Assembly: GCF_010730355.1 (NCBI RefSeq) | Contig: NZ_AP022576.1 | Location: 3,844,001-3,908,000 of the forward strand | DNA length: 64,000 nt | Source: Mycobacterium florentinum | GTDB taxonomy: Bacteria > Actinomycetota > Actinomycetes > Mycobacteriales > Mycobacteriaceae | Direction: 5' to 3' | Part shown: positions 48,959-63,991 of the stretch, piece by piece | Layout: each line of letters opens with the position of its first letter | How positions within the stretch are numbered: position 1 is the first letter of the stretch | Position numbers and translations under genes: made by a program | The notes under the pieces: model-generated | What the model saw: only the letters and a program-made list of their open reading frames with translations | Database searches by the model: none | What the model was told of the DNA's origin: nothing

Positions 48959-49783
48959 TCACGTGCGAACCAGGAACCCTGCGTCGACGGGCAGCTCCAC
49001 CCCGGTAACATAGCGCGATCTGTCCGAGGCGAGCCACACGACGGCATCGGTGATGTCTGCAGCGTCCAGCAGGGGCTTGGGTAGCGCATTGCGCAGTTGG
49101 CCGACGAGATCGGGGTGCTCTGCGGTGAAGCTTTGGAACGCGGAGTTGCGAACCATTGGAGTATCGACCCCGGTCGGGTGCACGGTATTAACTCGGATGC
49201 TATGTGGCGCGAGAATATTGGCGTACATGCGCATCAAGCCGACGACTCCATGTTTGGCCGCTACGTAGCCGGCCGATCCCGCCTCGAGATGGGTGTGCAA
49301 GCCCCGCATGCCGGCTGTCGAACTCGTGATGATGATCGACCCGCCTTCACCTCCGTCAACGAGGGCAGGTGCGGTAGCGCGCAAGGTGTGCCAGACACCG
49401 TTCAACATCACGTCGACGGAGTCGTAGAACGCTTGATCGTCGTCGCCGTGTTCGCCGACTGTCGCCATAATGCCGGCATTCGCCACCACGATGTCCAGCC
49501 TGCCCAGTTCGGCGATGCAATGATCAACCGCCGCAAGCATTGTCGAGAGACTGCGCACATCGCCCTCGACAGGCAACGCCCGGACACCTAGACGCTCGAT
49601 GCGCTCGACAGTTTCGACGAGGTCCGCGCGCGAAGACATGGGATAGCCGACCGTGTCGATCTGCGAGCAGATGTCCAACACGACGACGTCCGCCCCACCC
49701 GCAGCAAGGCCGACGGCGTGTGAGCGACCCTGTCCCCGCGCGGCCCCCGTCACGAACGCGACCTTGCCCGACAGATCTGTCAC
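48959..49783 (-). CDS. Mycofactocin-coupled SDR-family oxidoreductase
   Basis: 274 residues. SDR with cofactor motif TGAARGQGRSHA and the signature block LDICSQIDTVGYPMSS that distinguishes the mycofactocin-coupled subgroup (TIGR03971 type), which keeps its NAD tightly bound and recycles it through mycofactocin. Catalytic Ser in SSTAG and Tyr/Lys in YVAAKHG. Probably oxidises an alcohol in the divergent pathway. GTG 49783 has AAGG 7 nt upstream; a longer start at 49846 is weaker. Confidence 0.88.
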   Translation of the reverse strand: MTDLSGKVAFVTGAARGQGRSHAVGLAAGGADVVVLDICSQIDTVGYPMSSRADLVETVERIERLGVRALPVEGDVRSLSTMLAAVDHCIAELGRLDIVVANAGIMATVGEHGDDDQAFYDSVDVMLNGVWHTLRATAPALVDGGEGGSIIITSSTAGMRGLHTHLEAGSAGYVAAKHGVVGLMRMYANILAPHSIRVNTVHPTGVDTPMVRNSAFQSFTAEHPDLVGQLRNALPKPLLDAADITDAVVWLASDRSRYVTGVELPVDAGFLVRT

Positions 49784-50023
49784 GTCGACACCTTCCCGTG
49801 GCAATGACTGGGTTGATTCGATTGCCGGCGTGGGCGATTCGGTCACTCAAACAGGTTCGCCGCAAACCTGGCCTGGTGCGAAAGATAACAGCCGAAGCGC
49901 TACCGGCCGTCAGCAGTAACTACGACAGCCGCGGGGAACCAGCCGTACGTTGCACGGATGACAGGCCTTTTGGAGTGGGGCGACGATGGAATCTCGCGGC
50001 CCCGTTGACGAAAGGCGGACGAC
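49784..50023. promoter_or_regulatory. Divergent control region between the SDR and the 12-kb operon
   Basis: 240 nt with no credible gene. It holds an inverted repeat CAGGTT-CGCCGCA-AACCTG (49852-49870), a possible operator. Promoters for the SDR gene and the plus-strand operon must lie here, but no unmistakable -10/-35 pair is visible. No regulator gene is adjacent. Confidence 0.35.
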
Positions 50024-51148
50024 ATGCACTTTGGCGTGCTGTTGCTCCTGGCAAATGCCAGCTCCGGAAAGACAGACCCCGAACTGTGGAAGGAGGAGAT
50101 GGAACTGGGCGTGCGCCTCGAGGACCTCGGTTACGACTCGGTATGGGTCCCCGAGCATCACTTCGACCGGCCTTACTGCATCTCTCCCGACCCGCTTCAG
50201 GCGCTGACGTACCTGGCGGCGAAGACGTCGACAATCAAACTAGGTACCGGCGCCATCATCCTGCCTTGGTGGAAGGGCCAGACCGATCCGATCCGGCTAG
50301 CGGAGCGGATATCGATGCTCGACGCGCTCTCGGACGGCCGACTTCTACTTGGCCTCGGCCGCGGTCTCGCCCGCGATGAGTATGAGGGCTTCGGCGTGGA
50401 GATGTCCGAATCCCGCGAGCGGTTTTTCGAGGCTGCGACCATGATTCTCGACGGGCTGGAAAACGGTTATATCGACCATGATGGCAAGTACTACAAGCAG
50501 ATTCGTCGTGACGTATTCCCCAAACCTGAGCGGGGTTTCCGGGACCGGATTTACAACATCGCGATGTCCCCCGAATCGACCCTGGCTTGCGGCGACTTCG
50601 GCGGCACGATGATGTGTTTCAACTACCAACATGAGATCGACAAGCAGGCCGAGCAGTTCGAGACCTGGCGCGCGCGCTTCCGCGAGAAGCAAGGCAGCGA
50701 GCCGCCACCACCGGTCCTGCTCGACTTCGCCTACTGCCACGAAGACGCTGAGATCGCGGATCGGACTATGCGAAATCATCTGGCGCCGTTCTACTCGGCG
50801 ATGGTCGACCACTACGAGTTCGACGGACTGCACTTCGGCAAGAGCAAGGGGTACGAGTCCTACCAGGAGGGCGCGACGCTGTTGCTCGAATCCGGGCGCG
50901 AGGCCGGATTCGAGAAGTTCTACGGCCTCCAGTGGAAGGGCACGCCCGAGGCGATGATCGAGCAGATGCGTAGGCGCATCGCACTCATCGGGGAGTTCAA
51001 GCAGATGCTGCTCGTTTCCTACGGTGGCCTTCCGTTGGAAACCGTCCAACGGAGTCTGAAGCTGATCGCCGACGAGGTCATTCCCGAGGTGAACAAGATC
51101 GCCGCGGAGGCCGCGAGGGCCCGGACTGAAGCGCCCGTCGGGGCGTAG
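50024..51148 (+). CDS. LLM-class flavin-dependent monooxygenase, Rv1936-like
   Basis: 374 residues of the luciferase-like TIM-barrel family: MHFGVLLLLANASS, VWVPEHHFDRPY (typical EHHF), LGTGAIILPWW, GRLLLGLGRG. It uses reduced flavin (FMNH2) or F420H2 and, with O2, can insert oxygen (Baeyer-Villiger or hydroxylation). A flavin reductase is encoded in the same operon, which favours FMNH2. First gene of the operon; ATG 50024 with AAAGGCGG upstream. Related to Rv1936, which also sits near a flavin reductase and RibA1. Confidence 0.85.
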   Translation: MHFGVLLLLANASSGKTDPELWKEEMELGVRLEDLGYDSVWVPEHHFDRPYCISPDPLQALTYLAAKTSTIKLGTGAIILPWWKGQTDPIRLAERISMLDALSDGRLLLGLGRGLARDEYEGFGVEMSESRERFFEAATMILDGLENGYIDHDGKYYKQIRRDVFPKPERGFRDRIYNIAMSPESTLACGDFGGTMMCFNYQHEIDKQAEQFETWRARFREKQGSEPPPPVLLDFAYCHEDAEIADRTMRNHLAPFYSAMVDHYEFDGLHFGKSKGYESYQEGATLLLESGREAGFEKFYGLQWKGTPEAMIEQMRRRIALIGEFKQMLLVSYGGLPLETVQRSLKLIADEVIPEVNKIAAEAARARTEAPVGA

Positions 51149-51155
51149 TGAGTCG

Positions 51156-52526
51156 ATGACCGGACACGGACACGTGCGCGACGAGGCCTCACGCTATTGG
51201 AATCCCGAACGCGAACTTCGCGATCCCAAAGAGCGCAACGAGGCAGCACTAGCACAACTCGTCATCCAGCTCGAGCGATGCTACCGGCTGCCGTTCTACC
51301 GAAAGCTATGGGATTCCCATGGCTTTCGGCCAGAACAGGTTCGTGGCTTCGACGACTTCACCAAGCGCTGCCCTGTGGTGACCAAGAAGTTGCTGATCGC
51401 TGATCAGGTCGAAAACCCGCCGTTCGGTTCGTATCTGGGCGTCCCGCCAACGGAGATATGTCGCATCCACGGATCCAGCGGTACCTCGGGCACACCCACG
51501 ATATACGGCGTCTCACAAGCGGACTGGGATAGCGCGCGGGAGATATTTGCACTCACGCACTGGGCGGCGGGTGTAAGGCCCTCCGACATCGTTCATTTCG
51601 CGTTCCCATTCGGGATGTTCTTCGGAGGCTGGGCCATGCTCTATGCGGCGCAGTCCGTCGGTGCGGCCGTTTTTCCAATGGGCGCTGCGGATACCCGCCG
51701 GCACGTTGAGATGATCTACAAACTCGGTTGCACAGTCATTGAGGGCACGCCGTCGTATCTGCTGCACATGGGCGAGGTGGCCCGGGAGATGGGATACGAT
51801 CCGGCCGCTTCGCCGCTGCGGGTCTTTCTCAGCGGCGGCGAGCCGGGTGGGTCCATCCCGTCTACGCGCAAACTGCTACTGGATACGTGGGGTCTGCAGA
51901 CAGTCTGTGACGCGGGCTCATCCTCAGAGATGTTCCCGTTCGTCAGCAACGCTGAATGCGCGGAAATGACTGGGATGCATGTGTATAACGACGAGGTCTG
52001 GACCGAGATTGTTGATCCGGACGATCCACACAAATCGGCGGCGGAGGGGGAGGTCGGCAACCTCGTCTACACGCATTTGCGACGGGAGTCGCAGCCGATG
52101 ATCCGGTTCGCGGCGAACGACCGTAGCTTTATGACTTCCGAGCCGTGTGCCTGCGGAAGGACATACCCGCGGTTGCCGTTGGGGCTGCTCGGTAGAGCGG
52201 ACGACATGCTTGTGATACGCGGTGCGAACATCTTCCCGTCCGCGGTGGAACACGCGCTACGCAACGTTGACGGGCTCGGCGTCGAGTTCCGGATACGAGT
52301 CACCAGCAGGGGCCGACTCGACGAGATCATCGTGGAAAGCGAGATCGATCCGGAGTTCTCGCAAACCGAACAAAGCCTCGCCGACTTGCGACACAGGGCG
52401 GAGGAAGAGCTCAAATACCGGTGCCTGATTCGCATTCCGGTCAAGTTGGTTGAGTCGGGAACATTCCTGCGAGCCAATGGCAAGGCTCGGCGCGTCATCG
52501 ATGAGCGAGAGCTGGTGAATAGTTAG
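51156..52526 (+). CDS. Phenylacetate-CoA ligase-like AMP-forming acyl-CoA ligase
   Basis: 456 residues. PaaK-like architecture: N-terminal RNEAALAQLVIQLERCYRLPFYRK, P-loop GSSGTSGTPTIYG, adenine-binding CDAGSSSEMF, RFAANDR and GRADDMLVIRGANIFPSAVE. Activates a carboxylic acid substrate with ATP and CoA. Second gene of the operon, 7 nt after the LLM gene and 2 nt before the P450. The exact substrate is not predictable. Confidence 0.85.
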   Translation: MTGHGHVRDEASRYWNPERELRDPKERNEAALAQLVIQLERCYRLPFYRKLWDSHGFRPEQVRGFDDFTKRCPVVTKKLLIADQVENPPFGSYLGVPPTEICRIHGSSGTSGTPTIYGVSQADWDSAREIFALTHWAAGVRPSDIVHFAFPFGMFFGGWAMLYAAQSVGAAVFPMGAADTRRHVEMIYKLGCTVIEGTPSYLLHMGEVAREMGYDPAASPLRVFLSGGEPGGSIPSTRKLLLDTWGLQTVCDAGSSSEMFPFVSNAECAEMTGMHVYNDEVWTEIVDPDDPHKSAAEGEVGNLVYTHLRRESQPMIRFAANDRSFMTSEPCACGRTYPRLPLGLLGRADDMLVIRGANIFPSAVEHALRNVDGLGVEFRIRVTSRGRLDEIIVESEIDPEFSQTEQSLADLRHRAEEELKYRCLIRIPVKLVESGTFLRANGKARRVIDERELVNS

Positions 52527-52528
52527 CC

Positions 52529-53764
52529 ATGACAGCGTCACTATCTGATGTCAACATTCTCAGTCCGGACGCGGTAAGCGATCCGTACTCGTATTTCGCA
52601 CCCTTGCGTGATACGCGTCCGGTGTTCTGGGATGCCCGCTACAAGTCGTGGCTTCTCACCAGCCACGACGTAGTGTCGAGAGCTCTTAGAGACGACCACT
52701 TTTCGTCGAACCGAATTGTGCCGTTCATCGACAACAAGCTCACTGGGCCCGATGCTGACCCGCTGATTCTTCAGGCGTTCACAGTTCTGAAGGACTGGAT
52801 GGTGTTCCAGGACGAGCCAGGCCACGCGCGGTTACGCGGCCTGGTGCGAACGGCTTTCACGCCGCGGGCGATCGCGAAGATGGAAGAGGGCGTGCGAAAG
52901 CTGTCCGAGCAACTTCTCGCCGCCATCGACTACGGTTCGGAGTTCGACCTCATCGAACACTTTGCCTATCCGCTGCCGGCCATGGTGATCGCCGAAATGC
53001 TCGGCGTACCACTAAAGGACCGAGGTATGTTCCGCCGATGGGCGGAGGACATCGGGCCGCTGGTTTCGGGCGGCCTCGACGACCCGGACCGCTATCAGCG
53101 TGCCGCGGGCGCAATGGCGGAACTGGTTGAGTTCTTCGCCGACATGTTGCGTCATTACCGCGCGCAACCTGCCGACAATCTGATCACCGCGCTCATCCGC
53201 GCCCGCGACGCCAATGACAGCCTGACTGAGGCAGAGGTCATCGCGACCTGCACGCTGTTGATGTTTGGCGGACACGAGACTACGGCCAACCTGATCGCGA
53301 ATTCCGTCCTCGCACTGATCCGTCATCCCGACGAGATGGACGCATTCTGTGAGGGTTTGATCACCCCCGCTGATGCGGTGGAAGAGTTTCTCCGTTATGA
53401 CGGACCGGGCAAGGCCGTCGTGCGGCTGGTCGGTGAGGAGGTCGAGTACGGCGGTGAGGTGCTGCGTCCTGGTCAACGCGTGTTCATAGTGCTGGCCGCG
53501 GCCAATCACGACCCCGCGGTGTTCGGCGATCCGGACGCTCTGCGCCTGCGCCGAAACGCCAAACAGCACTTGTCATTCGGATTCGGCTCACACTTTTGTC
53601 TGGGCGCCCCCTTGGCCCGACTGGAAGGCCGGATTGCGTTGCCATTGCTGGCCAACGCACTTCGTCGATTTGAGCTCGCCGACCGGGAGCTGAAGTGGCA
53701 ACCTGTTTTCCTGACCCGGGGCCTGCAGGAGCTTTGGATCAAACCCGGTCGGGGAGCGGTGTGA
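52529..53764 (+). CDS. Cytochrome P450
   Basis: 411 residues. I-helix GGHETT (247-252), ExxR EFLR (286-289), heme-binding FGFGSHFCLGAPLARLE with Cys357. Class I bacterial P450, needing ferredoxin and reductase not encoded in this window. Probably hydroxylates the starting compound. Its stop overlaps the next start (GTGA). Confidence 0.93.
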   Translation: MTASLSDVNILSPDAVSDPYSYFAPLRDTRPVFWDARYKSWLLTSHDVVSRALRDDHFSSNRIVPFIDNKLTGPDADPLILQAFTVLKDWMVFQDEPGHARLRGLVRTAFTPRAIAKMEEGVRKLSEQLLAAIDYGSEFDLIEHFAYPLPAMVIAEMLGVPLKDRGMFRRWAEDIGPLVSGGLDDPDRYQRAAGAMAELVEFFADMLRHYRAQPADNLITALIRARDANDSLTEAEVIATCTLLMFGGHETTANLIANSVLALIRHPDEMDAFCEGLITPADAVEEFLRYDGPGKAVVRLVGEEVEYGGEVLRPGQRVFIVLAAANHDPAVFGDPDALRLRRNAKQHLSFGFGSHFCLGAPLARLEGRIALPLLANALRRFELADRELKWQPVFLTRGLQELWIKPGRGAV

Positions 53765-55401
53765 GCGCTCCGAAGATCCCCGCGGAACTCGCACACCGGA
53801 TTCCGGTCGGTCCGGGGCTAGGGAATGCCTTCTGGACGGCCGGTTCGGTTGGTCTGTTGCTGGTTCAGCGCTGTAGTTCGTGCGACACGATGGTGCATCC
53901 GTCGCATGAGTTGTGCCCGTACTGCAGCTGCGCGGATCTATGCCCCGCTCCAGTGTCAGGCGATGCGACGGTGGTGGCCGCGACGGTGAACCACCAGCAG
54001 TGGATTCCGGAACTCACCGAGCCTTATGTGGTGGCCGTAGTGTCGCTTGACGACGCTGCACATCTGCGGCTCGCGACCAACATCGTTGACTGCGCGCCCA
54101 ACGAGGTGCGGATCGGGATGCGGGTACGTGTGCAGTTCCGCCGACTCGACGACGTCTGGATTCCGGTATTCGGACCCACTCGCGACGCGCCGTCTGCAGC
54201 GACCATCGACGAACCGATGACACTGAGGCCACCGACGCCGTCGCGCCGACGTTTCGAACACGAGGTTGCGATCACCGGCCTGGGCAAGTCAGAGTTTGCT
54301 CGCCACGCAGAGAGCCCGGCAGCTGACTTGGTGTTGTCTGCGTGCCGCGCCGCGATCGGCGATGCCGGGTTGGAACCCGCTGACATCGACGGGATCTCGG
54401 CATATCCCGGGCGAGCCGATTTGGCAGCCGTTGAGATCGGAAAGCTGGCTGGAGAGCTCGGTATCGATCAGGCCTGGCACGACGGGGCGCACGAGGTTGC
54501 GGGGCAGACCGGCGCGGTGATCGCAGGGATGTTGAGTGTGGCCGCCGGCTTCTGTCGTCATGTCCTGTGCTGGACCGCGGTGACCACGCACACGCGTCCT
54601 GGCCTGTACACCTGTAGCGATACCGGACGGGTGAGCGGAGAACCGCAGTGGTACGAGCCGTTTGGCGCGTTATCCCCAGCGAACTGGATCGCTTTGGCAG
54701 CGTCGCAATACCAGCACAGGTACGGAGTTTCACGCCAAGCGCTGGGGTGGGTCGCGATCTCGGCCCGACGGCACGCCGCACGCAACCCGGATGCGCTGTA
54801 TAGATCTCCGCTAAGTATGAGTGATTACCTTGCAGCACGCCCTATTTCGACTCCGTTCGGTCTATATGACTGCGACGTGCCGTGCGACGGCGCGATCGCC
54901 GTGGTGGTGTCCAGCGCCGCCACCGCAGCAGATCTGCGACACCCAGTGGTCGGTGTCGACGCCGTCGGCACCCGGATTACCGAGGAACAGTCGTGGATCA
55001 GCGGGACATTGACCCACCAACCGAACCTGTTTGGGCCAGCCGAGCATCTGTGGAGCCGGGCCAGCGTGGGACGAGACGATGTCGACTTCGCCAACCTTTA
55101 CGACGGCTTCACGTTCAACGTGCTCTCCTGGTTGGAGGCGCTTGGGTTCTGCGGACTTGGCGAGGCCGGCGACTTCGTCTTGGGCGGAACCCGAATCGGA
55201 CCTGGGGGACTGTTACCGGTCAACCCGCACGGCGGTCAGCTGACCGCCGGACGAAGCAACGGCTTCGGCCAGCTTCACGAGGCTGTTGTCCAGCTTCGTG
55301 GGGACGCCGGCGCCCGTCAGATCGATCGCGCGCAGGTAGGGCTGGTGACCAGCGGTGGGGGAATACCCGCGAATTGCATGCTACTAACCCGGGCGAGCTG
55401 A
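53761..55401 (+). CDS. DUF35 OB-fold fused to Ltp2-like thiolase/aldolase
   Basis: 546 residues in two parts. Residues about 1-160 are a DUF35 domain: zinc ribbon CSSC (38-41) and CPYC (52-55), then an OB fold. Residues about 170-546 are a thiolase-like domain of the lipid-transfer/SCPx type with ANLYDGFTFNVLSWLEALGF, NPHGGQLTAGRSNGFGQL and VQLRGDAGARQ. In steroid side-chain degradation the aldolase Ltp2 works with the separate DUF35 part of ChsH2; here both are one chain. It probably performs retro-aldol or thiolytic C-C cleavage of a CoA ester. Confidence 0.82.
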   Translation: MSAPKIPAELAHRIPVGPGLGNAFWTAGSVGLLLVQRCSSCDTMVHPSHELCPYCSCADLCPAPVSGDATVVAATVNHQQWIPELTEPYVVAVVSLDDAAHLRLATNIVDCAPNEVRIGMRVRVQFRRLDDVWIPVFGPTRDAPSAATIDEPMTLRPPTPSRRRFEHEVAITGLGKSEFARHAESPAADLVLSACRAAIGDAGLEPADIDGISAYPGRADLAAVEIGKLAGELGIDQAWHDGAHEVAGQTGAVIAGMLSVAAGFCRHVLCWTAVTTHTRPGLYTCSDTGRVSGEPQWYEPFGALSPANWIALAASQYQHRYGVSRQALGWVAISARRHAARNPDALYRSPLSMSDYLAARPISTPFGLYDCDVPCDGAIAVVVSSAATAADLRHPVVGVDAVGTRITEEQSWISGTLTHQPNLFGPAEHLWSRASVGRDDVDFANLYDGFTFNVLSWLEALGFCGLGEAGDFVLGGTRIGPGGLLPVNPHGGQLTAGRSNGFGQLHEAVVQLRGDAGARQIDRAQVGLVTSGGGIPANCMLLTRAS

Positions 55402-55429
55402 AAATGGCTGTGAGATGGGGAGTTCCACG

Positions 55430-56539
55430 ATGATCGGACCCGCGGACGACTATCTGATCCATCAGACCCACGAGCCCGTCCGATACGTGGGCACCAGCGA
55501 CCGGCGGTTCTATGACCGACACTTCCTCACCGGCCACTGTCAAGACCAGCCCATCTTCTTCCTCCTCGGGATGGGGTGCTACCCGAACCTCGGCGTGATC
55601 GACGCGTTCGCCTCCGTCGCCACCGCCGACGCCCAGCACACCACGCGCGGTTCGCGGGAACTGACCGCCGACCGGTTCAACACCGCCGACGTCGGCCCAC
55701 TGACCCTTGAGGTAGTGGAAGGACTGCGGCACTTGCATTTTGAGGCGAAGCCCTGCGGTCAGACGGTCGAGTTGGACCTGCGATGGCAGGCAGCCGCAGT
55801 CCCACTCGAAGAACCGCCGCTGTTCAGCCGCGTACTGGGCCGGGTCATGGACCAGGGCACTCGCATCATCCAGACCGGAACCTGGAGCGGGCATCTGAGC
55901 GTAGCCGGGCAGCGTTACGAGGTGACGCCGGACAAGTGGTGGGGAGCGCGGGACCGGTCCTGGGGTGTGCGATCGATGGGTCTAGAACGTGAACCCGCCG
56001 GTATCGCCCAGGCGCACCAGGTCGGTCGAGATCGACCTCCGCTGTGGATCTGGTCGCCGATGCAATTCGAAAAACGAACAATACATTTCAGCCTCTCGGA
56101 GCACGCGGACGGTCGCCGCGAGGTTGAAACCGTGCTGCAGGCACCGACGTCGGATTCCTCGGTCGGTGATGTGATCACCCTCGGCGAACCCGAACACGAT
56201 CTGAAGTTCGACGCCGAGACCCGGGAACTGCTGGAGGGATCCTCGGTGTCGTTCCGCGACGTCGACGGACGACGGTGCACCGTCGCGCTGACTCCGTTGC
56301 ATCGCGCGTACCTGCGCGCCGGCACCGGATACGGCGGTCCAGACCCCTGGCGACACGGCGCGTATCGCGGGCAGTCCTGGACAGATTCGGTGTCCTTTGA
56401 CATCACCGATCCGGCAGTGACGGCCAAAATCGGCCCCACCCACGTCCTGTGCCGCATGGAGGCAAGCACCGGTGAGGTCGGCTACGGCACGTTCGAGACC
56501 CAGGTTTTCGGATCCTTCCCCCGTTACGGGTTGTACTGA
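55430..56539 (+). CDS. AttH/CrtC-like (DUF7065/DUF7064) protein
   Basis: 369 residues, rich in beta structure, with the motif ARDRSWGVRSMG typical of the hydroxyneurosporene synthase (CrtC)/AttH-related lipocalin-like proteins (DUF7064/7065, named from memory). No signal peptide. CrtC hydrates carotenoid double bonds, but for this family the reaction is unknown; binding or hydrating a terpenoid- or steroid-like substrate is possible. ATG 55430 has GGGGAG 7 nt upstream. Its stop overlaps the next ATG by one base. Confidence 0.65.
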   Translation: MIGPADDYLIHQTHEPVRYVGTSDRRFYDRHFLTGHCQDQPIFFLLGMGCYPNLGVIDAFASVATADAQHTTRGSRELTADRFNTADVGPLTLEVVEGLRHLHFEAKPCGQTVELDLRWQAAAVPLEEPPLFSRVLGRVMDQGTRIIQTGTWSGHLSVAGQRYEVTPDKWWGARDRSWGVRSMGLEREPAGIAQAHQVGRDRPPLWIWSPMQFEKRTIHFSLSEHADGRREVETVLQAPTSDSSVGDVITLGEPEHDLKFDAETRELLEGSSVSFRDVDGRRCTVALTPLHRAYLRAGTGYGGPDPWRHGAYRGQSWTDSVSFDITDPAVTAKIGPTHVLCRMEASTGEVGYGTFETQVFGSFPRYGLY

Positions 56540-57564
56540 TGACCACCACGGTGTGCGGGTCGGTATCGCGGACCTACGAGACTGAACTTGCCGGTGCGCT
56601 AAAGGATTACGTCCGCAGCCGGCTGGGTCGCAGCGTCGAGATCGCCGGTCTGCGCAAGCTCTCCGGCGGCACCTCACACGAAACTTGGGCGTTCGACATG
56701 CACGACACCAGGGCCAGCGAAGTGCGCCATCTGGTTCTGCGCCGAGACGTCGAAGGTGGAATGCTTGACGGGGACCTCGGCACCGAATTTGACTTGCTCA
56801 CAGCGTTGACCAGATCCGGGTTTCCCGTCCCGCGGCCGTGGTGGTGTGAGGCCCAGGCGTCCCCACTGACGACACCATTCATGATCATGGAACGGGTTGA
56901 CGGCACCGACATCCGCAAATACCTGGCCGCTCACCCCAAAACTGACCGTGGATGGCTTGGCACCGAACTCGTCACGTTGCAGAGCCGGCTTCACCGACTT
57001 GATTGCCGCCAGCTACCGCTGCCGGCCGGTTCGCACGCCGGGGCCGTCGCCGAACTAGATAAATGGACCAGGGCGATCGACGCCACCGATATCGACCCCG
57101 GACCGCTGATCAACGCTGCGACGTCGTGGCTGAGCCGAAACCTGCCGCACACACCACGGCTGACGTTGGTGCACGGCGATTTCAAGTCGAACAACCTGGT
57201 GTTCGGGGTGGACGGCACTGTCACCGTGCTCGACTGGGAACTGGCGCATATCGGTGATCCGTTGGAGGACATCGCCTGGACGTTGTTGTGGACAACCCGC
57301 TTCGACCTCGTGGGCGGACTGCTCACGGCAGCCGACTACCAGGAAGCCTACGAGAAAGCCACCAACGTCACAGTGGATCCGGCGGCGCTGCTGTTCTGGC
57401 GGATCCTGGCACTCGTCAAACTCGCCGCGATCTTCCTGACCGGCGTCTCCCGCGGTTCAGCGACCAGCCCAACGCTGGCGCTGATGGGTCGTGGGGTCTA
57501 CCGCCTCGAAGCCGATCTCGCCGATTTACTAGAACTGTCGCTGGACGAGGCGCAACACCGATGA
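56539..57564 (+). CDS. APH-type phosphotransferase (LvaA/ACAD10-like)
   Basis: 341 residues. Kinase-like fold: GGTSHETWAF near residue 43, catalytic HGDFKSNNLVF, metal-binding VLDWELAHIGDPLEDIAW. Its partner gene 57561-58061 overlaps by 4 nt. This order recalls LvaA-LvaB of the levulinate pathway, in which LvaA phosphorylates a 4-hydroxyacyl-CoA. No acyl-CoA dehydrogenase is in this operon, so another gene in the genome would have to complete such a route. Confidence 0.82.
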   Translation: MTTTVCGSVSRTYETELAGALKDYVRSRLGRSVEIAGLRKLSGGTSHETWAFDMHDTRASEVRHLVLRRDVEGGMLDGDLGTEFDLLTALTRSGFPVPRPWWCEAQASPLTTPFMIMERVDGTDIRKYLAAHPKTDRGWLGTELVTLQSRLHRLDCRQLPLPAGSHAGAVAELDKWTRAIDATDIDPGPLINAATSWLSRNLPHTPRLTLVHGDFKSNNLVFGVDGTVTVLDWELAHIGDPLEDIAWTLLWTTRFDLVGGLLTAADYQEAYEKATNVTVDPAALLFWRILALVKLAAIFLTGVSRGSATSPTLALMGRGVYRLEADLADLLELSLDEAQHR

Positions 57565-58061
57565 GCATCGACGCCCTCGCGGCCTTAGGGGTGGTCAGGA
57601 CGTTCCTTAGCGCCGACATCGTGCCGGTGGTGCCTGAGGCTTCGGCCGGTGAACTGCGCGCTGCGGTGAAACTGCTTGAGACAGCAGCCATTGAACTCGC
57701 CGACCGGCACAGTTCCGTTCGTGCCGAGAGCGTCGATCTCATTGGCTTGTGTGCGCGGGCAGCCACATTGCTCGGTCTTGACACGGTGTCGCTGGAGGCG
57801 ACCGCACAGGGCCGCCGTACACAAGCCGAGCCGAGCAGTCCCGCGATGGAGCTGCTGTGGGCCGACGCCCGGTCGTTGACGACAACCGTCGTGTCCCGAC
57901 TACAAGACCAGGCCACCGCATCCGAGCAAGCCCGTTGCCTGCTCAGACAGTTTTACCGCTGCCTGGGTGACCACGCCCGGTCACGGCTGGCCTGGCAATC
58001 GGTGTTCCCGGCGGCAGGGAGCAACACGGGCGTCGAAGAACCTCTAAAAGGAGGCGCATGA
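57561..58061 (+). CDS. Small hypothetical protein paired with the phosphotransferase (DUF6285/LvaB-like?)
   Basis: 166 helical residues with an N-terminal MSIDALAALGVVRTFLSADI that loosely resembles the small DUF6285-type partners of APH proteins, such as LvaB. No catalytic motif is evident. It starts inside the stop of the phosphotransferase gene and ends in overlap with the aldehyde dehydrogenase gene (ATGA), so it is certainly part of the operon. Function by association only. Confidence 0.55.
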   Translation: MSIDALAALGVVRTFLSADIVPVVPEASAGELRAAVKLLETAAIELADRHSSVRAESVDLIGLCARAATLLGLDTVSLEATAQGRRTQAEPSSPAMELLWADARSLTTTVVSRLQDQATASEQARCLLRQFYRCLGDHARSRLAWQSVFPAAGSNTGVEEPLKGGA

Positions 58062-59491
58062 CCACGATCGAAACGGACACCCTGTTGGTGGCCGGAACCC
58101 AGGTGCGTGCGAAAAATCAGACCGCTGTGGTCAATCCGGCAACAGGCCGGGCATTCGCGCAGTGTCCCGTCGCATCGGATGCACACTTGCAGCTGGCGGT
58201 CGAATCTGCCGACGCAGCGCGGGCTGCCTGGGCTCGCGATGCCGATCTGCGCCGTCGCGTCCTCCTCGGGATGGCCGAGATGCTCAGCAAGAACCGGGAC
58301 CTGCTGGCCAAGACGCTGACCCAGGAAATCGGTGTTCCGTTGCGCGACACCACCATCGAAGTAGCCGGTGCCGCGGCCTTCGCGAAGTTCCGAGGGGCCG
58401 CCCCGCTGCCCGTGGAGCAGATCCACGACGACGCCCGCCAGAGCGTCCAGGTAAACCGCGCCCCGGTCGGCATCGTTGGTGCGATCGTGCCGTGGAACGC
58501 GCCGCTTCTCATCTCCGCCGAAAAGATCGCCACCGCGTTCGCGGCGGGCAATGTTGTAGTGCTCAAGCCCTCGTTGCTGGCTCCACTGACCACCGTCTTG
58601 CTCGGGTCACTGCTGGCCGACATCGTGCCGCCGGGCGTACTGCACGTGCTACCCGGCGACGACGACCTCGGCAAGGCTCTGGTGGCACACCAGAAGGTCG
58701 GCATGATCTCGTTCACCGGAAGTATCGCCGCCGGCCGCGCGATCATGGCCGCGGCGGCCCCCAGGCTCAAGCGGTTGTCACTGGAACTGGGCGGCAATGA
58801 CGCCGCGATCGTGCTGCCCGATGTCGACATTCCCCGGGTTGCCTCGCAGATCTTCCGGAGCGCCTTCTACCGCAGCGGGCAGGTCTGCGCGGCGATCAAG
58901 CGGCTATACGTACACAAGGACATTCGCGACGAGTTCGTCGCAGCACTGGCCGACGTCGCCGACAACGCCGCCGTCGGCGACCCATTCGATCCAGACGTCA
59001 CCATGGGCCCGATCTCCAACCGGCCGCAGTTCGACCGTGTCCGTCGCCTCGTCGCCGATGCGGTCGCCGCTGGCGGCACCATCGTCGCCGGCGGGCACCC
59101 CATTGCGCGCGACGGCTATTTTCACGCGCCGACCCTAGTGACCGGCGTGGGTCCCGGTATCGCGGTGGTCGACGAGGAACAGTTCGGTCCGGTGCTGCCG
59201 ATCCAATCGTTCACCGATATCGACGCGGCGGTGGCGGCCGCCAACGACAGCGACTACGGGTTGGGTGCGTCAGTGTGGACCGCCGACACTACCGCTGGCG
59301 CCGCGATCGCCGCCGATCTGGACGCCGGGTCGGTGTGGGTGAACCGCCACGGCATCGTCTCCCCGGAGGTTCCGTTCGGCGGAATGAAGCAAAGTGGCGT
59401 CGGCCGTGCCAACGGAGCTCCCGGCCTGGACCAATACAGCGAACTCAAGACCGTCAGCGTGGCGATCCACGCCAGGAAACCCACACCCTAG
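58058..59491 (+). CDS. NAD(P)-dependent aldehyde dehydrogenase
   Basis: 477 residues. Catalytic Cys277 (SGQVCAAI), general-base Glu243 (LELGGN) and Asn147 (PWNAPL) are all present. Cofactor region includes FTGSIAAG. Oxidises an aldehyde intermediate of the pathway to the acid, possibly feeding the acyl-CoA ligase. In translational coupling with the preceding gene. Confidence 0.9.
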   Translation: MTTIETDTLLVAGTQVRAKNQTAVVNPATGRAFAQCPVASDAHLQLAVESADAARAAWARDADLRRRVLLGMAEMLSKNRDLLAKTLTQEIGVPLRDTTIEVAGAAAFAKFRGAAPLPVEQIHDDARQSVQVNRAPVGIVGAIVPWNAPLLISAEKIATAFAAGNVVVLKPSLLAPLTTVLLGSLLADIVPPGVLHVLPGDDDLGKALVAHQKVGMISFTGSIAAGRAIMAAAAPRLKRLSLELGGNDAAIVLPDVDIPRVASQIFRSAFYRSGQVCAAIKRLYVHKDIRDEFVAALADVADNAAVGDPFDPDVTMGPISNRPQFDRVRRLVADAVAAGGTIVAGGHPIARDGYFHAPTLVTGVGPGIAVVDEEQFGPVLPIQSFTDIDAAVAAANDSDYGLGASVWTADTTAGAAIAADLDAGSVWVNRHGIVSPEVPFGGMKQSGVGRANGAPGLDQYSELKTVSVAIHARKPTP

Positions 59492-59508
59492 ACGAAGGCG
59501 GTGCAGCC

Positions 59509-60393
59509 ATGGACAAGCTACTTGACGGGGGGATGTTCTTCGAGGGTCCTCGGTGGCGCGACGGCAACTGGTACGTCTCGGACCTCTACGCTCGTCACGT
59601 ACTGCGGGTCACCGTCGACGGAATCGCTGAGCAATTCGTCGAAGTGCCCAACCAGCCTTCGGGGTTGGGCTGGCTGCCCGACGGGTCGCTCGTGGTGGTC
59701 TCGATGAAGGACCGGCGCATACTTCGCCGGCTCCCGGACGGCACCACCATCGAACACGCTGACCTATCGCCCCTGTCCCCGTACTTCATCAACGACATGG
59801 TCGTGGACGGACGGGGTCGCGCTTACGTCGGCACCTTCGGCTTCGACCTATTCGCCGGTGGCAAGCCAGAACCCGGCGAAATTGTGCGCGTCGATCTGGA
59901 CGGCTCGGCGCACGTCGCCGCGAGCGGTCTGCGATTTCCCAATGGGATGGCGGTGACGCCCGACAGCGGGACCCTCATCGTCGCCGAGTGCTTCGGCGGC
60001 CGGTTCACGGCATTCGACATCGAGTCTGACGGCGCCCTGAGCGGCCGTAGGCAGTGGGCCCGGCTGGCGGACGCGCCATCTTACGAGTCGGTCGAGACCA
60101 TCGTCGCAACCGACTTTGCCCCGGACGGCTGTGCCCTCGACGCCGACGGGCACATCTGGGTGGCCGACGCCCTCAATGGCCGGGTCTGCCGGGTCGCGCC
60201 GGGCGGCGAGATCACCGACGAACTACGTCCACCAGGAGAACTCGGGCTTTACGCGTGCGCACTCGGCGGTCACGACGGCCATACGCTGCTGGTCTGTACC
60301 GCACCGAGTTTCGCCGAGCACGAACGAAAAGCGGCCAAGGAGGCCGAGTTGTACATCCAGCGGGTGGACGTGCCGCGGGCAGGCACACCGTGA
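59509..60393 (+). CDS. SMP-30/gluconolactonase-family lactonase
   Basis: 294 residues of a six-bladed beta-propeller: FFEGPRW (metal-binding Glu), FINDMVVDGRGRAYVG (Asn-Asp), FPNGMAV (Asn) and FAPDGCALDADGHIWVAD (Asp). Metal-dependent lactone or ester hydrolysis is expected; the lactone could come from Baeyer-Villiger oxidation by the LLM monooxygenase. ATG 59509, AAGGCGG upstream. Overlaps the flavin reductase start by one base. Confidence 0.85.
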   Translation: MDKLLDGGMFFEGPRWRDGNWYVSDLYARHVLRVTVDGIAEQFVEVPNQPSGLGWLPDGSLVVVSMKDRRILRRLPDGTTIEHADLSPLSPYFINDMVVDGRGRAYVGTFGFDLFAGGKPEPGEIVRVDLDGSAHVAASGLRFPNGMAVTPDSGTLIVAECFGGRFTAFDIESDGALSGRRQWARLADAPSYESVETIVATDFAPDGCALDADGHIWVADALNGRVCRVAPGGEITDELRPPGELGLYACALGGHDGHTLLVCTAPSFAEHERKAAKEAELYIQRVDVPRAGTP

Positions 60394-60926
60394 TGGCCAC
60401 CGGCCCCAAACCCAAGACCATCGGTGGGCTTCAGATCCGAGCCGTCGCGGAGGACCCCACAGAAATCCGCCGCGCCTTCGCGTGCTTCCCAAGCGGTGTG
60501 ACCGCGTTGTGCGGCCTCGCTGACGGGATCCCGGTGGGAATGGCGGCGAGTGCATTCACTGCGGTATCGATTGCGCCGCCGCTAGTTTCGGTGTGCATGC
60601 AGATCAGCTCGACGACATGGCCCAAGCTTCGGCAGCTACCCAGGCTGGGCGTCAGCATGCTCGCCCGCCACCAGCACAACGCCTGTCGCGCTCTGTCGGT
60701 GAACGATGGCGACCGGTTCACCGACGTGCCCTGGGACGCGTCAGAAAACGGCGCTGTATTCGTCAATGAGGCCACTGCATGGCTGGACTGTTCGGTGGAC
60801 GACGAGGTGGCCGCCGGCGACCACGTCATCGCCCTACTGGCCATCCATGGACTGCGCGCCGACCCTGACCAAGACCCGCTGGTGTTCCATCTCAGCCGAT
60901 TCCGCCAACTGACCCCGACGTCCTAA
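60393..60926 (+). CDS. Flavin reductase-like (split-barrel FMN-binding) protein, Rv1939-like
   Basis: 177 residues. Split-barrel flavin reductase pattern: FACFPSGVTALCGLADGIPVGMAASAF and VCMQISSTTWPKLRQ, then a C-terminal HVIALLAIHGLRADPDQDPLVFH. Supplies reduced flavin to a two-component monooxygenase, most likely the LLM protein at the start of the operon. ATG 60393 (GTG 60390 adjacent). Confidence 0.85.
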   Translation: MATGPKPKTIGGLQIRAVAEDPTEIRRAFACFPSGVTALCGLADGIPVGMAASAFTAVSIAPPLVSVCMQISSTTWPKLRQLPRLGVSMLARHQHNACRALSVNDGDRFTDVPWDASENGAVFVNEATAWLDCSVDDEVAAGDHVIALLAIHGLRADPDQDPLVFHLSRFRQLTPTS

Positions 60927-60936
60927 CGGTGTCGCA

Positions 60937-62076
60937 GTGAGACATTCACCAATCCAAGCGGAAGCCCGCAACCCTGACACAGCGATGGGTAACCCGCACA
61001 ACCGCCGAGTCCGAGTGGCGCGCGCGCTAGACGACCTTCGTGCGGGCCGACCTATCCTCATCTTCGGCGAACCCGTCACGCCCGGTGGCGCGCCCGCGAC
61101 CCTCGTGTTCGCCGCGCAGTACGCGACAACGGCGACGCTGGCGTTCGTGATCAGGCACACGTGTGGTTTCGTGTGTATTGCGCTGCCGGACAGGGAATGT
61201 GACCGACTCATTCTGCCCGCGATGTCGACACTCGGCGCCCGACTGCCCGCCACCCAATTCAGGGTGAGCGTAGACGCCGCCGACGGCGTGACCACCGGAA
61301 TATCGGCGGCGGACCGGGCACATACCATGCGGGTGCTCAGCGACCCGACGGCCACCCACCAAGCTCTCACGCGACCGGGTCATGTCGTGGTATGTGGCGT
61401 CGCCGGACGGGCCCTGTCGAGGCCGCTCTTGCCCGAACACGCAGCGTTAAAGATGGTTGCGGCCGCAGGCCTGCGGCCGGCAGCCGGGTTCAGCGCCATC
61501 GTCAACGACATCGACCACGACGAGATTCTGCCCGCGGAGATGGTCGATCGCTTTGTGGCCGAGCACGATCTGAGCATGATCAGCATGGCCGATCTATGGG
61601 GACAAGACCGACTCCACAACTGCACGCCAGAACCGCGATGTCACGCACGGCCACTGGGCATTGTCCAAACACAGTCCGGTGCCTTCAACGCAACCGGCTA
61701 CCGATGGGGTTCACCGCACCACGTCGAGGACCTCGTGTTCACCTTCGGCGATCTGGCCGGCGCTGCTCAGATACCAGTCGCAGTGCATGCTGAGTGCGCA
61801 TTCGCCCCAATCCCAGATGTGCTCGGCTGTCAATGCGGACCCCGGCTGAACGAGTCCTTCGACCAGATCGCCGCGGCCGGGCGGGGGGTCCTCGTCTACT
61901 TGCGTAGCAACGCGGAAGCGCTGTGTCCGGTCAGCGCGGCGAGCCGCCGCGACCACATTCTGGCAACTATCGGCCTTTCCTCCGTGCACCTGTTGCGCGA
62001 CAACGCGTGCGGCGCTCAGCGGTGCATCCGGTTGGAGTCGCCCGACGTATCCGGTCTGTCGACGTTCAGCCGTTGA
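60937..62076 (+). CDS. Degenerate RibBA-like protein (DHBP synthase + GTP cyclohydrolase II), RibA1-like
   Basis: 379 residues, GTG start. The N-terminal RibB-like part keeps FRVSVDAADGVTTGISAADRA and RPGHVV but lacks the acidic catalytic loop DDEDREN of RibB (here FGEPVTPGGAPA) and the HTEA motif (LPEHAAL). The C-terminal RibA-like part keeps zinc cysteines (HAEC, GCQCG) but lacks the downstream GRGIGL substrate loop. So neither canonical reaction looks intact. M. tuberculosis RibA1 (Rv1940) is likewise in a flavin-monooxygenase cluster. A cofactor-related or new reaction is possible. Confidence 0.75.
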   Translation: MRHSPIQAEARNPDTAMGNPHNRRVRVARALDDLRAGRPILIFGEPVTPGGAPATLVFAAQYATTATLAFVIRHTCGFVCIALPDRECDRLILPAMSTLGARLPATQFRVSVDAADGVTTGISAADRAHTMRVLSDPTATHQALTRPGHVVVCGVAGRALSRPLLPEHAALKMVAAAGLRPAAGFSAIVNDIDHDEILPAEMVDRFVAEHDLSMISMADLWGQDRLHNCTPEPRCHARPLGIVQTQSGAFNATGYRWGSPHHVEDLVFTFGDLAGAAQIPVAVHAECAFAPIPDVLGCQCGPRLNESFDQIAAAGRGVLVYLRSNAEALCPVSAASRRDHILATIGLSSVHLLRDNACGAQRCIRLESPDVSGLSTFSR

Positions 62077-62296
62077 CCGCCGAGACAGACGCAGGTCATC
62101 GCCGGCGCATCGTCCGCGATCCGTACTTCATACGACCCCAAGTTTGGGCCGGTTACGTACTTTCCCCGGTTGTTGGTGACTCAGGACACAGCAACGATAT
62201 AAACGCGTAGTCAGAATATGACCGGCTTGAATCGAATGCCGTGCACTTTCGTATCGGCGAAACGGCCGTGGAAAATTGAATCCCGGAGGGATAGCG

Positions 62297-63043
62297 ATGG
62301 ATAGAATCACACAACACAGGCTTAACCTCGCGATTGCCTGGTGTGGACCGGCATTCGTGCTCGGATATGTTATCTTCTGGGGGATTTTCGGACATAACGT
62401 ACCCCCGCCAAATATGATCGGGCTGAGTGGCCAGGAACTTGTCGCGCAATACTACGGCGCGCACCAGCAATCGATCATGATCGGTATGGCGGTCTCTATG
62501 GTCGTGGCTTTCCTTTACCTGCCCTGGTGCTGCCTACTCAGTGGTTTGATCAACGATGAAGAACGCGGTGCCACCAACGTCCTGAGCCGGATGGAACTGA
62601 CCGGCGGCGCGCTCACAGCGTGGTCGCTCGGTTTCTGCCCGGGTTTATGGCTGCTGGCCGCCACTTTCGTCCACGACCTGGACCCGAATATCGTCAAAGC
62701 CTTCCACGTGTTCGGCTGGTTCACCTACGACATGACGTTCGGGATCACAACCGTCCAGTGCGTGGGCGTAGGGCTATGGACCGTGCTGAACAAGCGCCAG
62801 ACGATGTTCCCGGCGTGGGCAGGTTGGTGCACCATCGCCGTGGGAACCATATTCCTGACGCTTGTCGTCCTGCCCTGGATCAAAGCAGGACCGTTCACCG
62901 TGTCGGGCACGTGGAACTTCTTCGTAGTCTTCGGCTCCTGGTTGTTCGCCTTCTTCGGCTTGTATAGCTACTTCATTGTCAAGGAGCTGACCGGGCGGCT
63001 GAAGGACGCTACTTCACCATCGGCCGCAGTGAGCGTGGCGTAG
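62297..63043 (+). CDS. Polytopic membrane protein
   Basis: 248 residues with about six to seven transmembrane helices; extracellular-facing loop NVPPPNMIGLSGQELVAQYY, aromatic and Gly-rich helices (WLFAFFGLYSYF). No confident family. ATG 62297 has GGAGGG 6 nt upstream. It precedes the oxidase-like subunit genes by 52 nt on the same strand and is probably transcribed with them. No histidine pattern for heme was evident. Confidence 0.65.
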   Translation: MDRITQHRLNLAIAWCGPAFVLGYVIFWGIFGHNVPPPNMIGLSGQELVAQYYGAHQQSIMIGMAVSMVVAFLYLPWCCLLSGLINDEERGATNVLSRMELTGGALTAWSLGFCPGLWLLAATFVHDLDPNIVKAFHVFGWFTYDMTFGITTVQCVGVGLWTVLNKRQTMFPAWAGWCTIAVGTIFLTLVVLPWIKAGPFTVSGTWNFFVVFGSWLFAFFGLYSYFIVKELTGRLKDATSPSAAVSVA

Positions 63044-63095
63044 CCCAATTCGGTGGTCTGATATCGCGCCCGCAATATAGGCGGAGGGAGCAAAC

Positions 63096-63692
63096 ATGGA
63101 CGGCGACATAGCCGAAGAACTTGCCGACGAGCCTCGCGCAAAGACGTTCCCGGTGGGGAGTGAAGGCATCTGGACCTTCGTCTTCATCGACATGATCGTG
63201 TTCCTGCTGATATTTTTCGTCTTCACCACGCAGCGGATTGATCAATACTCCCTGTACCGAGATGCGCACCACCATCTCAGCGTCATATTTGGATTCGCCA
63301 ATACCATTATCCTTTTGACAAGCTCTTTATTTGTGGTGCGTGGTGTGCGCGCCGCACGCGCGGGAATTGCGACGAAAGTCATGAGCCAGCTGCAATTTGC
63401 GCTTGGATGTGGGCTTCTCTTCTTCGCCAGTAAGGCGATCGAGTATTATGGCAAATTCGCGGCGGGGATCGGTATCGCGACATCGTCCTTTTTCACATTC
63501 TACTTCTTCATCACATTCTTACATCTGCTGCATTTGTTCGGCGCCGTGATATTCGTAATCGCATACCGACGGGGCGCTCGCGACGGAGTTATGGATCCGC
63601 GCTATGTGACGGGTGTCGAGAATGTCGGACTGTTCTGGCATTTCGTCGACCTGTTGTGGGTCTTTATATTCACGCTGCTCTATCTGATGTGA
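63096..63692 (+). CDS. Cytochrome c oxidase subunit III-like/NorE-like protein
   Basis: 198 residues with five transmembrane helices in the COX3/NorE arrangement: an acidic cytoplasmic N terminus, WTFVFIDMIVFLLIFFVFTT, HHLSVIFGFANTIILLTSS and a final VGLFWHFVDLLWVFIFTLLY, the hallmark subunit III motif. NorE-type proteins accompany nitric oxide reductases or act with small heme-copper oxidase modules. No catalytic subunit lies within the window. 8 nt before the subunit IV-like gene. Confidence 0.82.
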   Translation: MDGDIAEELADEPRAKTFPVGSEGIWTFVFIDMIVFLLIFFVFTTQRIDQYSLYRDAHHHLSVIFGFANTIILLTSSLFVVRGVRAARAGIATKVMSQLQFALGCGLLFFASKAIEYYGKFAAGIGIATSSFFTFYFFITFLHLLHLFGAVIFVIAYRRGARDGVMDPRYVTGVENVGLFWHFVDLLWVFIFTLLYLM

Positions 63693-63700
63693 GGACACGC

Positions 63701-63991
63701 ATGACTGACAACGGACCCACGAGCGTCGCGGCCGATCCTGCCGTTTCAGTGTGGCTAGGACTTGTGCTGCTCAGCGGGGTCTCGTTCGCGGTGATCGAAG
63801 GCGGACTGGTCACCGCAATCGCGTCGGCGGTGGTCGTGCTAATCGCCGGATTAAAGGTTCGGCTTATCATGGTCTATTTCATGGAACTGAAGTCGGTTCC
63901 CCGAAATTGGCAGGTGATGTACACGGTCTGGATCATCGCCGCATCAGCGCTACTGATGATCGGCAATGTTGTTGCCATGGTGAAAGGCTGA
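63701..63991 (+). CDS. Cytochrome c oxidase subunit IV-like/NorF-like protein
   Basis: 96 residues with three transmembrane helices of the small COX4_pro/NorF type (WLGLVLLSGVSFAVIE, KVRLIMVYFMELKSVP, YTVWIIAASALLMIG). The VYFMELK loop between helices is typical. Pairs with the subunit III-like gene upstream. The ATG at 63701 is chosen over a longer frame from 63656, which would overlap the upstream gene. The window ends 9 nt after its stop. Confidence 0.8.
   Translation: MTDNGPTSVAADPAVSVWLGLVLLSGVSFAVIEGGLVTAIASAVVVLIAGLKVRLIMVYFMELKSVPRNWQVMYTVWIIAASALLMIGNVVAMVKG

What the first reader, a model, noticed from the sequence alone, without database searches (positions are those of the whole stretch)
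48959..62076. Twelve-gene catabolic system with mycofactocin SDR, LLM, P450, aldolase fusion and lactonase
Eleven plus-strand genes are spaced from a 4-nt overlap to 28 nt over 12 kb, divergent from a mycofactocin-type SDR. The gene set supports a route such as P450 hydroxylation, SDR oxidation, LLM Baeyer-Villiger oxygenation with the flavin reductase, lactone opening by the SMP-30 protein, aldehyde oxidation, CoA activation and C-C cleavage. A terpenoid, steroid-like or alicyclic substrate is plausible, but the substrate and order are inference. I do not know a described pathway with this gene set.
Basis: partly seen in the sequence, partly recalled or inferred. Interest (0 to 1): 0.75.

Follow-up and report, generated by a model that had tools for sequence, protein, structure and literature searches.

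The report
Mobile catabolic operon with kinase–lyase pair
A tightly packed set of genes, shared in much the same order by unrelated soil and water bacteria and once found on a plasmid, probably breaks down a terpene-like compound and includes a kinase and a lyase that together would strip a stubborn hydroxyl group off the molecule at the cost of ATP.

Summary
In detail: eleven plus-strand genes (50024-62076), spaced from a 4-nt overlap to a 28-nt gap, divergent from a mycofactocin-class SDR. It is a real conserved unit.
The Rv3169-family protein is homologous to crystallised 25-phosphosteroid lyase (E 3e-68) and lies beside an APH-type kinase. That pair is the logic of ATP-dependent dehydration of tertiary alcohols, known from anaerobic sterol degradation; here it sits in an aerobic P450/LLM operon. 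Of 70 lyase-family loci, 58 (49 with a rebuilt model) have a same-strand kinase within 1.5 kb.
Most likely: catabolism of a cyclic isoprenoid that carries or gains a tertiary alcohol, with retro-aldol cleavage. Substrate and step order are inference; steroid specificity is not favoured but not excluded. The unit extends past the window to a sensor kinase and response regulator. New variant of a known kind.

The parts
48959..49846 (-). Mycofactocin-class SDR (divergent; accessory)
   Evidence: TIGR03971 352 bits, cut-off 300; close orthologue (53-89%) in 3 of 8 other loci
50024..51148 (+). Luciferase-like (LLM) flavin monooxygenase; core
   Evidence: PF00296; in 8 of 8 other loci, 43-92%; 4 of 396 phylum genomes match at E<=1e-80, own included
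51156..52526 (+). PaaK-type acyl-CoA ligase, closest solved relative 2-hydroxyisobutyryl-CoA synthetase; core
   Evidence: 6hdw E 1e-99 against PaaK 4r1l 1e-66; in 7 of 8 other loci
52529..53764 (+). Cytochrome P450; core
   Evidence: PF00067; haem-ligand Cys in 9 of 9 loci
53761..55401 (+). DUF35 (zinc ribbon + OB) fused to a thiolase-fold aldolase-like domain; core
   Evidence: PF12172, PF01796, PF22691; best solved match Ltp2 + ChsH2(DUF35) 6ok1; YDGF and Arg498 in 108 of 108 aligned sequences, own included
55430..56539 (+). Rv3169-family protein, homologue of 25-phosphosteroid lyase; core
   Evidence: 9fzn E 2.7e-68 with shared motifs; NF053593 348 bits, cut-off 150; 9 of 9 loci
56539..57564 (+). 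APH-type small-molecule kinase; core
   Evidence: PF01636; ACAD11 kinase 8v3v E 1.8e-20; HxDxxxxN and LDWE/IDWE motifs in 9 of 9 loci
57561..58061 (+). Small helical protein, possibly an LvaB/DUF6285-like kinase partner; core
   Evidence: in 8 of 8 other loci, 32-75%; hhalign to DUF6285 prob. 49%, E 1.8e-4, 20 column shuffles at most 1.2%; model pLDDT 83.8
58058..59491 (+). Aldehyde dehydrogenase; core
   Evidence: PF00171 E 1.2e-141; in 7 of 8 other loci
59509..60393 (+). SMP-30/gluconolactonase-type protein; core
   Evidence: PF08450; metal-site Glu/Asn/Asn/Asp motifs in 9 of 9 loci (site recalled)
60393..60926 (+). Flavin reductase (start 60390 also possible); accessory
   Evidence: PF01613; 3pft E 3.5e-41; in 4 of 8 other loci, one of them only 36%
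60937..62076 (+). RibAB-like paralogue that lacks the DRENEGDL acidic loop; accessory
   Evidence: PF00926, PF00925; alignment with three own-genome paralogues; in 4 of 8 other loci
62297..63043 (+). Membrane protein of unknown family
   Evidence: 79% identical neighbour in Protofrankia L038
63096..63692 (+). CoxIII-like membrane protein
   Evidence: PF00510; 56% in L038, 34% in L021; CoxIII and CoxIV genes also on pRB98, about 15 kb from the cluster
63656..63991 (+). CoxIV-like small membrane protein
   Evidence: PF03626 E 2.4e-11; 38% in L038

Best explanation
This is a regulated, horizontally moving catabolic operon for a cyclic isoprenoid-type compound that carries, or is given by the P450, a tertiary alcohol. 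Shown: the conserved unit and the family of each enzyme. Inferred: the kinase (with the small protein as partner) phosphorylates the tertiary hydroxyl and the phosphosteroid-lyase homologue eliminates phosphate, giving an alkene (ATP-dependent dehydration). The P450, an SDR and the LLM monooxygenase oxidise the skeleton, the LLM probably by Baeyer-Villiger or epoxidation chemistry. The SMP-30 protein opens the resulting lactone, ALDH and the CoA ligase make an acyl-CoA, and the DUF35 fusion cleaves a beta-hydroxyacyl-CoA by retro-aldol reaction. A sensor kinase and a LuxR-type regulator just downstream probably control it. The order of steps and the substrate are not known.
For: Same gene set, mostly in one order, in other genera. 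Cluster members group together in the D35T tree (11 tips, support 0.997, of 108 taxa; L038 left out) and the lyase tree (9 tips, 1.0, of 73 taxa); the two unexpected tips of the lyase tree led to two further clusters. Lyase homologous to 25-phosphosteroid lyase with shared motifs GTSDRxFYDR, YPNLGVxDAF, GxRDRSWGVR, GTGYG..WRHG. The kinase-lyase tandem for tertiary alcohols is described in PMC8449060 (passages). Lyase-family genes have a same-strand kinase domain within 300 nt in 46 of 70 and within 1500 nt in 58 of 70 loci (42 and 49 with a rebuilt model), against about 0.009 expected per locus. Aldolase features: DUF35 with zinc Cys4, YDxF Tyr, no Cys at the thiolase sites by inspection (PMC12329534 passages). 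Sensor and regulator. Plasmid copy with transposase genes in the same stretch; GC 62.8% against 66.0% in 1-48958.
Against: No substrate evidence at all. The characterised kinase and lyase act on 25-hydroxysteroids, and low-molecular tertiary alcohols were hardly used by 25-HSK (PMC8449060). The window kinase matches the ACAD11 kinase domain (1.8e-20) better than 9fsg (5.7e-7), an APH-like kinase whose function I could not check, so the hydroxyl could be on an acyl-CoA. The D35T family lacks the second catalytic residue (Tyr344 or Cys304) of Ltp2 and Sal. 12 of 70 lyase-family loci have no kinase found nearby, 21 with the rebuilt model. The 70 loci are the 30 best matches and 40 picked by hand, many of them related, so they are no random or independent sample.
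Confidence: 0.6

Rival explanations
1. The kinase acts at the CoA-ester level, as LvaA/LvaB and ACAD10/11 do: a hydroxyacyl-CoA is phosphorylated and the lyase homologue removes phosphate to give an enoyl-CoA, so the substrate need not hold a tertiary alcohol.
For: Kinase best matched among solved structures by the ACAD11 kinase domain; a CoA ligase is in the operon; the 166-aa protein looks LvaB/DUF6285-like; LvaB is a 12-kDa partner of LvaA (PMC6692424 passages).
Against: No LvaC-type acyl-CoA dehydrogenase among the eleven genes; the lyase is of the 25-phosphosteroid lyase family, whose known substrate is a tertiary phosphoester without CoA (PMC8449060 passages).
Confidence: 0.2
2. Steroid or sterol side-chain pathway: an aerobic counterpart of the Sterolibacterium route acting on 25-hydroxysteroids.
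For: 25-PSL homology; Ltp2-type aldolase; KshA_C over Pfam's cut-off in 5 of 8 cluster-bearing genomes, strongly in 3.
Against: KshA_C is weak in 2 and not found in 3 of those 8 genomes (several are draft or metagenome genomes and may be incomplete). LLM and SMP-30 have no place in the known side-chain route (recalled).
Confidence: 0.14
3. One reading: P450 hydroxylation, SDR oxidation, LLM Baeyer-Villiger, lactonase, ALDH, CoA ligase, C-C cleavage, with kinase and lyase incidental.
For: These enzyme families are present.
Against: Kinase, lyase and small protein are in 9 of 9 loci, more constant than the mycofactocin-class SDR.
Confidence: 0.1
4. Specialised-metabolite biosynthesis or tailoring rather than catabolism.
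For: LLM and P450 match tailoring enzymes of natural-product clusters in part.
Against: No scaffold-building enzyme among the operon's genes or the annotated genes of the pRB98 stretch; the other loci were not annotated gene by gene. ALDH, CoA ligase and aldolase point to breakdown, and acyl-CoA dehydrogenase and crotonase genes lie beside the plasmid copy.
Confidence: 0.04

Closest known systems
25-hydroxysteroid kinase / 25-phosphosteroid lyase of Sterolibacterium denitrificans (PMC8449060 and PMC11061730, passages; PDB 9fzn, name of the entry only)
   Same: Lyase homologous over almost its whole length with shared motifs; an APH-type kinase beside it; the same dehydration logic
   Different: Here kinase and lyase are adjacent inside an aerobic P450/LLM operon; the 2021 paper reports no lyase candidate near the kinase gene; substrate here unknown
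Ltp2-ChsH2 and Sal-Shy steroid aldolases (PMC12329534 passages; PDB 6ok1)
   Same: Thiolase fold, DUF35 zinc ribbon and OB domain, Tyr of the YDxF/Y motif, no thiolase nucleophile
   Different: DUF35 fused in one chain; YDGF instead of YDHF/YDCY; Arg498 in place of Tyr344/Gln352
lva (levulinate) operon and ACAD10/11 (PMC6692424, PMC12440821 passages)
   Same: APH-type kinase with a small partner protein (lva); phosphorylation turns a hydroxyl into a leaving group
   Different: Elimination by a phosphosteroid-lyase homologue instead of an acyl-CoA dehydrogenase
Mce3R-regulated Rv1936-Rv1941 region of Mycobacterium tuberculosis (content recalled; only a search listing seen)
   Same: LLM, flavin reductase, RibA paralogue and SDR together (recalled)
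   Different: No kinase-lyase pair, P450, aldolase or SMP-30 there (recalled; not compared by sequence)
BphST-type sensor kinase/response regulator pairs of rhodococci (recalled)
   Same: Giant Ser/Thr-kinase-like, ATPase, histidine-kinase sensor with LuxR-type regulator beside a catabolic operon
   Different: Inducer and target unknown; not compared by sequence

Membership tests
25-HSK/25-PSL dehydration tandem | Lyase homologous to 25-phosphosteroid lyase | tested here: met
   9fzn E 2.7e-68 over residues 4-366
25-HSK/25-PSL dehydration tandem | APH-type kinase with catalytic motifs | tested here: met
   PF01636 E 1.6e-31; motifs in 9 of 9 loci. Orthology to 25-HSK itself not tested
25-HSK/25-PSL dehydration tandem | Acts on a tertiary alcohol and its phosphoester | not testable with these tools
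   Needs an assay
25-HSK/25-PSL dehydration tandem | Steroid substrate | tested here: inconclusive
   KshA_C over cut-off in 5 of 8 cluster-bearing genomes (3 strong, 2 weak), none in 3
Ltp2/Sal retro-aldolase | Thiolase fold with DUF35 partner | tested here: met
   Sequence match to 6ok1 chains A and B; fused; Cys4 zinc ribbon in 104 of 108 sequences
Ltp2/Sal retro-aldolase | Catalytic Tyr of the YDxF/Y motif | tested here: met
   Tyr447 in YDGF, 108 of 108
Ltp2/Sal retro-aldolase | Second catalytic residue: Tyr344 (Ltp2) or Cys304 (Sal) | tested here: not met
   Arg498 and Gly449 at those places, so not filed as Ltp2 or Sal; it may still work like them
lva operon | LvaB/DUF6285-type kinase partner | tested here: inconclusive
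   hhalign prob. 49% over 47 columns; one of six orthologues shows DUF6285, at E 0.61; that LvaB is DUF6285 is recalled
lva operon | LvaC-type acyl-CoA dehydrogenase | tested here: not met
   None among the eleven genes
Mycofactocin-dependent SDR | TIGR03971 above cut-off and mycofactocin maturase in the genome | tested here: met
   352 against 300 bits; TIGR03962 E 2.5e-201
SMP-30 lactonase | Family match and metal-site residues | tested here: met
   PF08450 E 1.7e-42; Glu/Asn/Asn/Asp motifs in 9 of 9 (site recalled)
SMP-30 lactonase | Lactonase activity | not testable with these tools
   Needs an assay
Type II Baeyer-Villiger monooxygenase | LLM family with flavin reductase partner | tested here: met
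   PF00296 and PF01613; reductase not found in 4 of 8 other loci, one of which (L202) ends near that place
Type II Baeyer-Villiger monooxygenase | Ketone-to-ester reaction | not testable with these tools
   Needs an assay
Mce3R regulon Rv1936-Rv1941 | Orthology gene by gene | not tested
   Recalled resemblance only

The most novel reading that the evidence does not exclude
Kinase plus phosphosteroid-lyase-family pairs are a general bacterial module that removes tertiary hydroxyl groups with ATP, present in mycobacteria (including the Rv3168-Rv3169 pair) and beyond; in this mobile operon the module has been joined to P450, LLM monooxygenase and a retro-aldolase to mineralise cyclic tertiary-alcohol terpenoids such as the odorants geosmin or 2-methylisoborneol.
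Probability: 0.25. Interest if true: 0.78.

Novelty: new variant of a known kind. Interest (0 to 1): 0.56.

Why it matters
Tertiary alcohols block ordinary alcohol oxidation and beta-oxidation, and few bacterial solutions are known (general knowledge). ATP-driven dehydration was described for an anaerobic sterol degrader; finding a homologue of its lyase beside a kinase in an aerobic operon that also occurs on a plasmid suggests a wider strategy. It gives a testable function for the Rv3169 family, which NCBIfam names only after a locus tag, and a nine-gene marker for finding degraders.
Full report
Observation. The window lies at G000:C1:3844001-3908000 of a 6.22-Mb single-contig genome. I take it as Mycobacterium because the closest named match is a Mycobacterium genome (L021). 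The eleven plus-strand genes and the divergent SDR are present with the stated spacing. Families: SDR (TIGR03971), LLM (PF00296), PaaK-type ligase, P450, DUF35 plus thiolase-fold fusion, NF053593 (Rv3169 family), APH kinase, a protein without a Pfam family, ALDH, SMP-30, flavin reductase and a RibAB-like protein.

A conserved unit. Gene-by-gene comparison showed the genes in one order in Mycobacterium sp. nzgw95 (L021, metagenome genome), an Acidimicrobiales metagenome genome (L022), Pseudonocardia eucalypti (L023) and Protofrankia coriariae (L038), and in changed order in a Sphingomonadaceae metagenome genome (L092). A plasmid search added Rhodococcus oxybenzonivorans pRB98 (L103), where the LLM and RibAB genes stand apart from the rest and transposase genes lie in the same stretch. 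The lyase tree placed two unnamed loci, of which I had only 5-kb stretches, among the cluster members; longer stretches fetched afterwards hold the cluster too (L201, L202). Across the nine loci the core is LLM, ligase, P450, fusion, lyase, kinase, small protein, ALDH and SMP-30: all nine genes in 7 of 9, L201 without ALDH and L092 without an orthologous ligase (L092 has another AMP-binding enzyme nearby). Flavin reductase and RibAB are in 5 of 9 each, window included; L202 ends near that place, so its lack there says little.

Distribution. In 198 same-genus genomes, own included, 157 hold a relative of the fusion at E<=1e-100, but the best listed apart from the window's own is 53% identical. 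In a tree of 108 fusion sequences the 11 of the cluster clade, five of them database proteins, separate from the other 97 (support 0.997). The LLM is matched at E<=1e-80 in 4 of 396 phylum genomes, own included, and the other three loci lack the lyase in the 12-20 kb fetched. Among the 120 listed protein relatives of the LLM, full-length ones fall from 55% to 47% identity after P0164. GC is 62.8% in 48959-63692 and 66.0% in 1-48958. Patchy occurrence, the plasmid copy and composition fit horizontal transfer; this is inference.

Extent. Downstream lie a membrane protein, CoxIII-like and CoxIV-like genes, then, outside the window (L101), a sensor with protein-kinase, AAA, TPR, GAF and histidine-kinase domains, a LuxR-type response regulator, a second thiolase-fold protein and an SDR. 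A related sensor is near the cluster in L021, L022, L023 and L038, L103 has an AAA-family ATPase followed by a response regulator, and L201 has protein-kinase, AAA and histidine-kinase domains in one frame with a LuxR-type regulator. None was seen in L092 or L202, which were only partly annotated.

Kinase and lyase. The Rv3169-family protein matches crystallised 25-phosphosteroid lyase at E 2.7e-68 with shared motifs; these motifs are largely kept in the cluster members. In Sterolibacterium a kinase phosphorylates the tertiary C25 hydroxyl and phosphate is then eliminated; the lyase gene was unknown in 2021 and no candidate lay near the kinase gene (PMC8449060, passages). I tested the pairing with 70 lyase-family loci, the 30 best matches plus 40 picked by hand further down its list: 46 have a same-strand kinase domain within 300 nt (35 upstream, 11 downstream) and 58 within 1500 nt, against about 0.009 expected per locus from 8 kinase domains in 1.38 Mb of 75 control loci. 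A model rebuilt with the loci's own hits gave 42 and 49. The M. tuberculosis pair Rv3168-Rv3169 is an operon under Rv3167c (PMC5340868, passages). The 166-aa protein behind the kinase resembles DUF6285 weakly but above shuffles; LvaB, a 12-kDa partner of the kinase LvaA, is the model (PMC6692424, passages; that LvaB is DUF6285 is recalled).

Aldolase. The fusion is best matched by Ltp2 and its DUF35 partner. Tyr447 stands at the catalytic base of Ltp2 and Sal; the second catalytic residue differs (Gly449, Arg498), the same in all 108 aligned sequences. I infer retro-aldol cleavage with an unassigned acid.

Other parts. The ligase is closer to 2-hydroxyisobutyryl-CoA synthetase than to PaaK, which would suit a hydroxy acid. 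The RibAB-like protein lacks the DRENEGDL loop in the window, L021, L022 and L023 and keeps it in L103, so a riboflavin-supply role is doubtful for four of the five copies.

Mechanism and substrate. Tertiary-alcohol dehydration combined with ring oxidation, lactone opening, CoA ligation and retro-aldol cleavage suits a cyclic isoprenoid. Steroids are less likely but not excluded: of 8 cluster-bearing genomes, KshA_C is strong in 3, weak but over Pfam's cut-off in 2 and not found in 3, some of them possibly incomplete. Geosmin and 2-methylisoborneol are offered as test substrates because both are cyclic tertiary alcohols and bacterial dehydration products have been reported (recalled, not found).

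Verdict. A real, conserved catabolic gene unit that I did not find described; each enzyme type is known, and the combination and the aerobic setting of the kinase-lyase pair are new as far as the searches named above show. On checking I lowered the main confidence from 0.62 to 0.60 and raised the steroid rival from 0.12 to 0.14, because KshA_C is over its cut-off in 5 and not only 3 of the 8 genomes.

Noticed in passing
window 60937-62076; L021, L022, L023: The RibAB paralogue lacks the acidic DRENEGDL loop of its dihydroxybutanone-phosphate synthase domain in 4 of 5 cluster copies compared (kept in L103), and another own-genome paralogue (L192) lacks it too: a possible pseudo-enzyme kept beside LLM monooxygenases.
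   Followed up: partly
70 lyase-family loci, L104-L173: Rv3169-family genes often pair with APH-type kinases: within 300 nt, 35 upstream and 11 downstream of 70; 12 of 70 have none found within 1.5 kb.
   Followed up: partly
L101:7607-8752 (outside the window): A second thiolase-fold protein downstream reads DDSS where the aldolase fusion reads YDGF, so it may be an inactive partner; relatives (43-47%) lie within 10 kb of the cluster in L022, L023 and L038.
   Followed up: no
108 DUF35-thiolase fusions: The YDGF motif and the Arg at 498 are invariant in all 108 sequences aligned, including the paralogue common in the genus: probably a large uncharacterised aldolase-like family.
   Followed up: partly
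window 62297-63991; L038:3018-4861; L103:1-450: CoxIII-like and CoxIV-like small membrane proteins recur within about 15 kb of this cluster in three genera; whether other oxidase subunits lie nearby was not checked.
   Followed up: no
L176 and L184: DUF6285 is read in one open frame with what looks by eye like an APH-type kinase, which suggests fused kinase and partner proteins.
   Followed up: no
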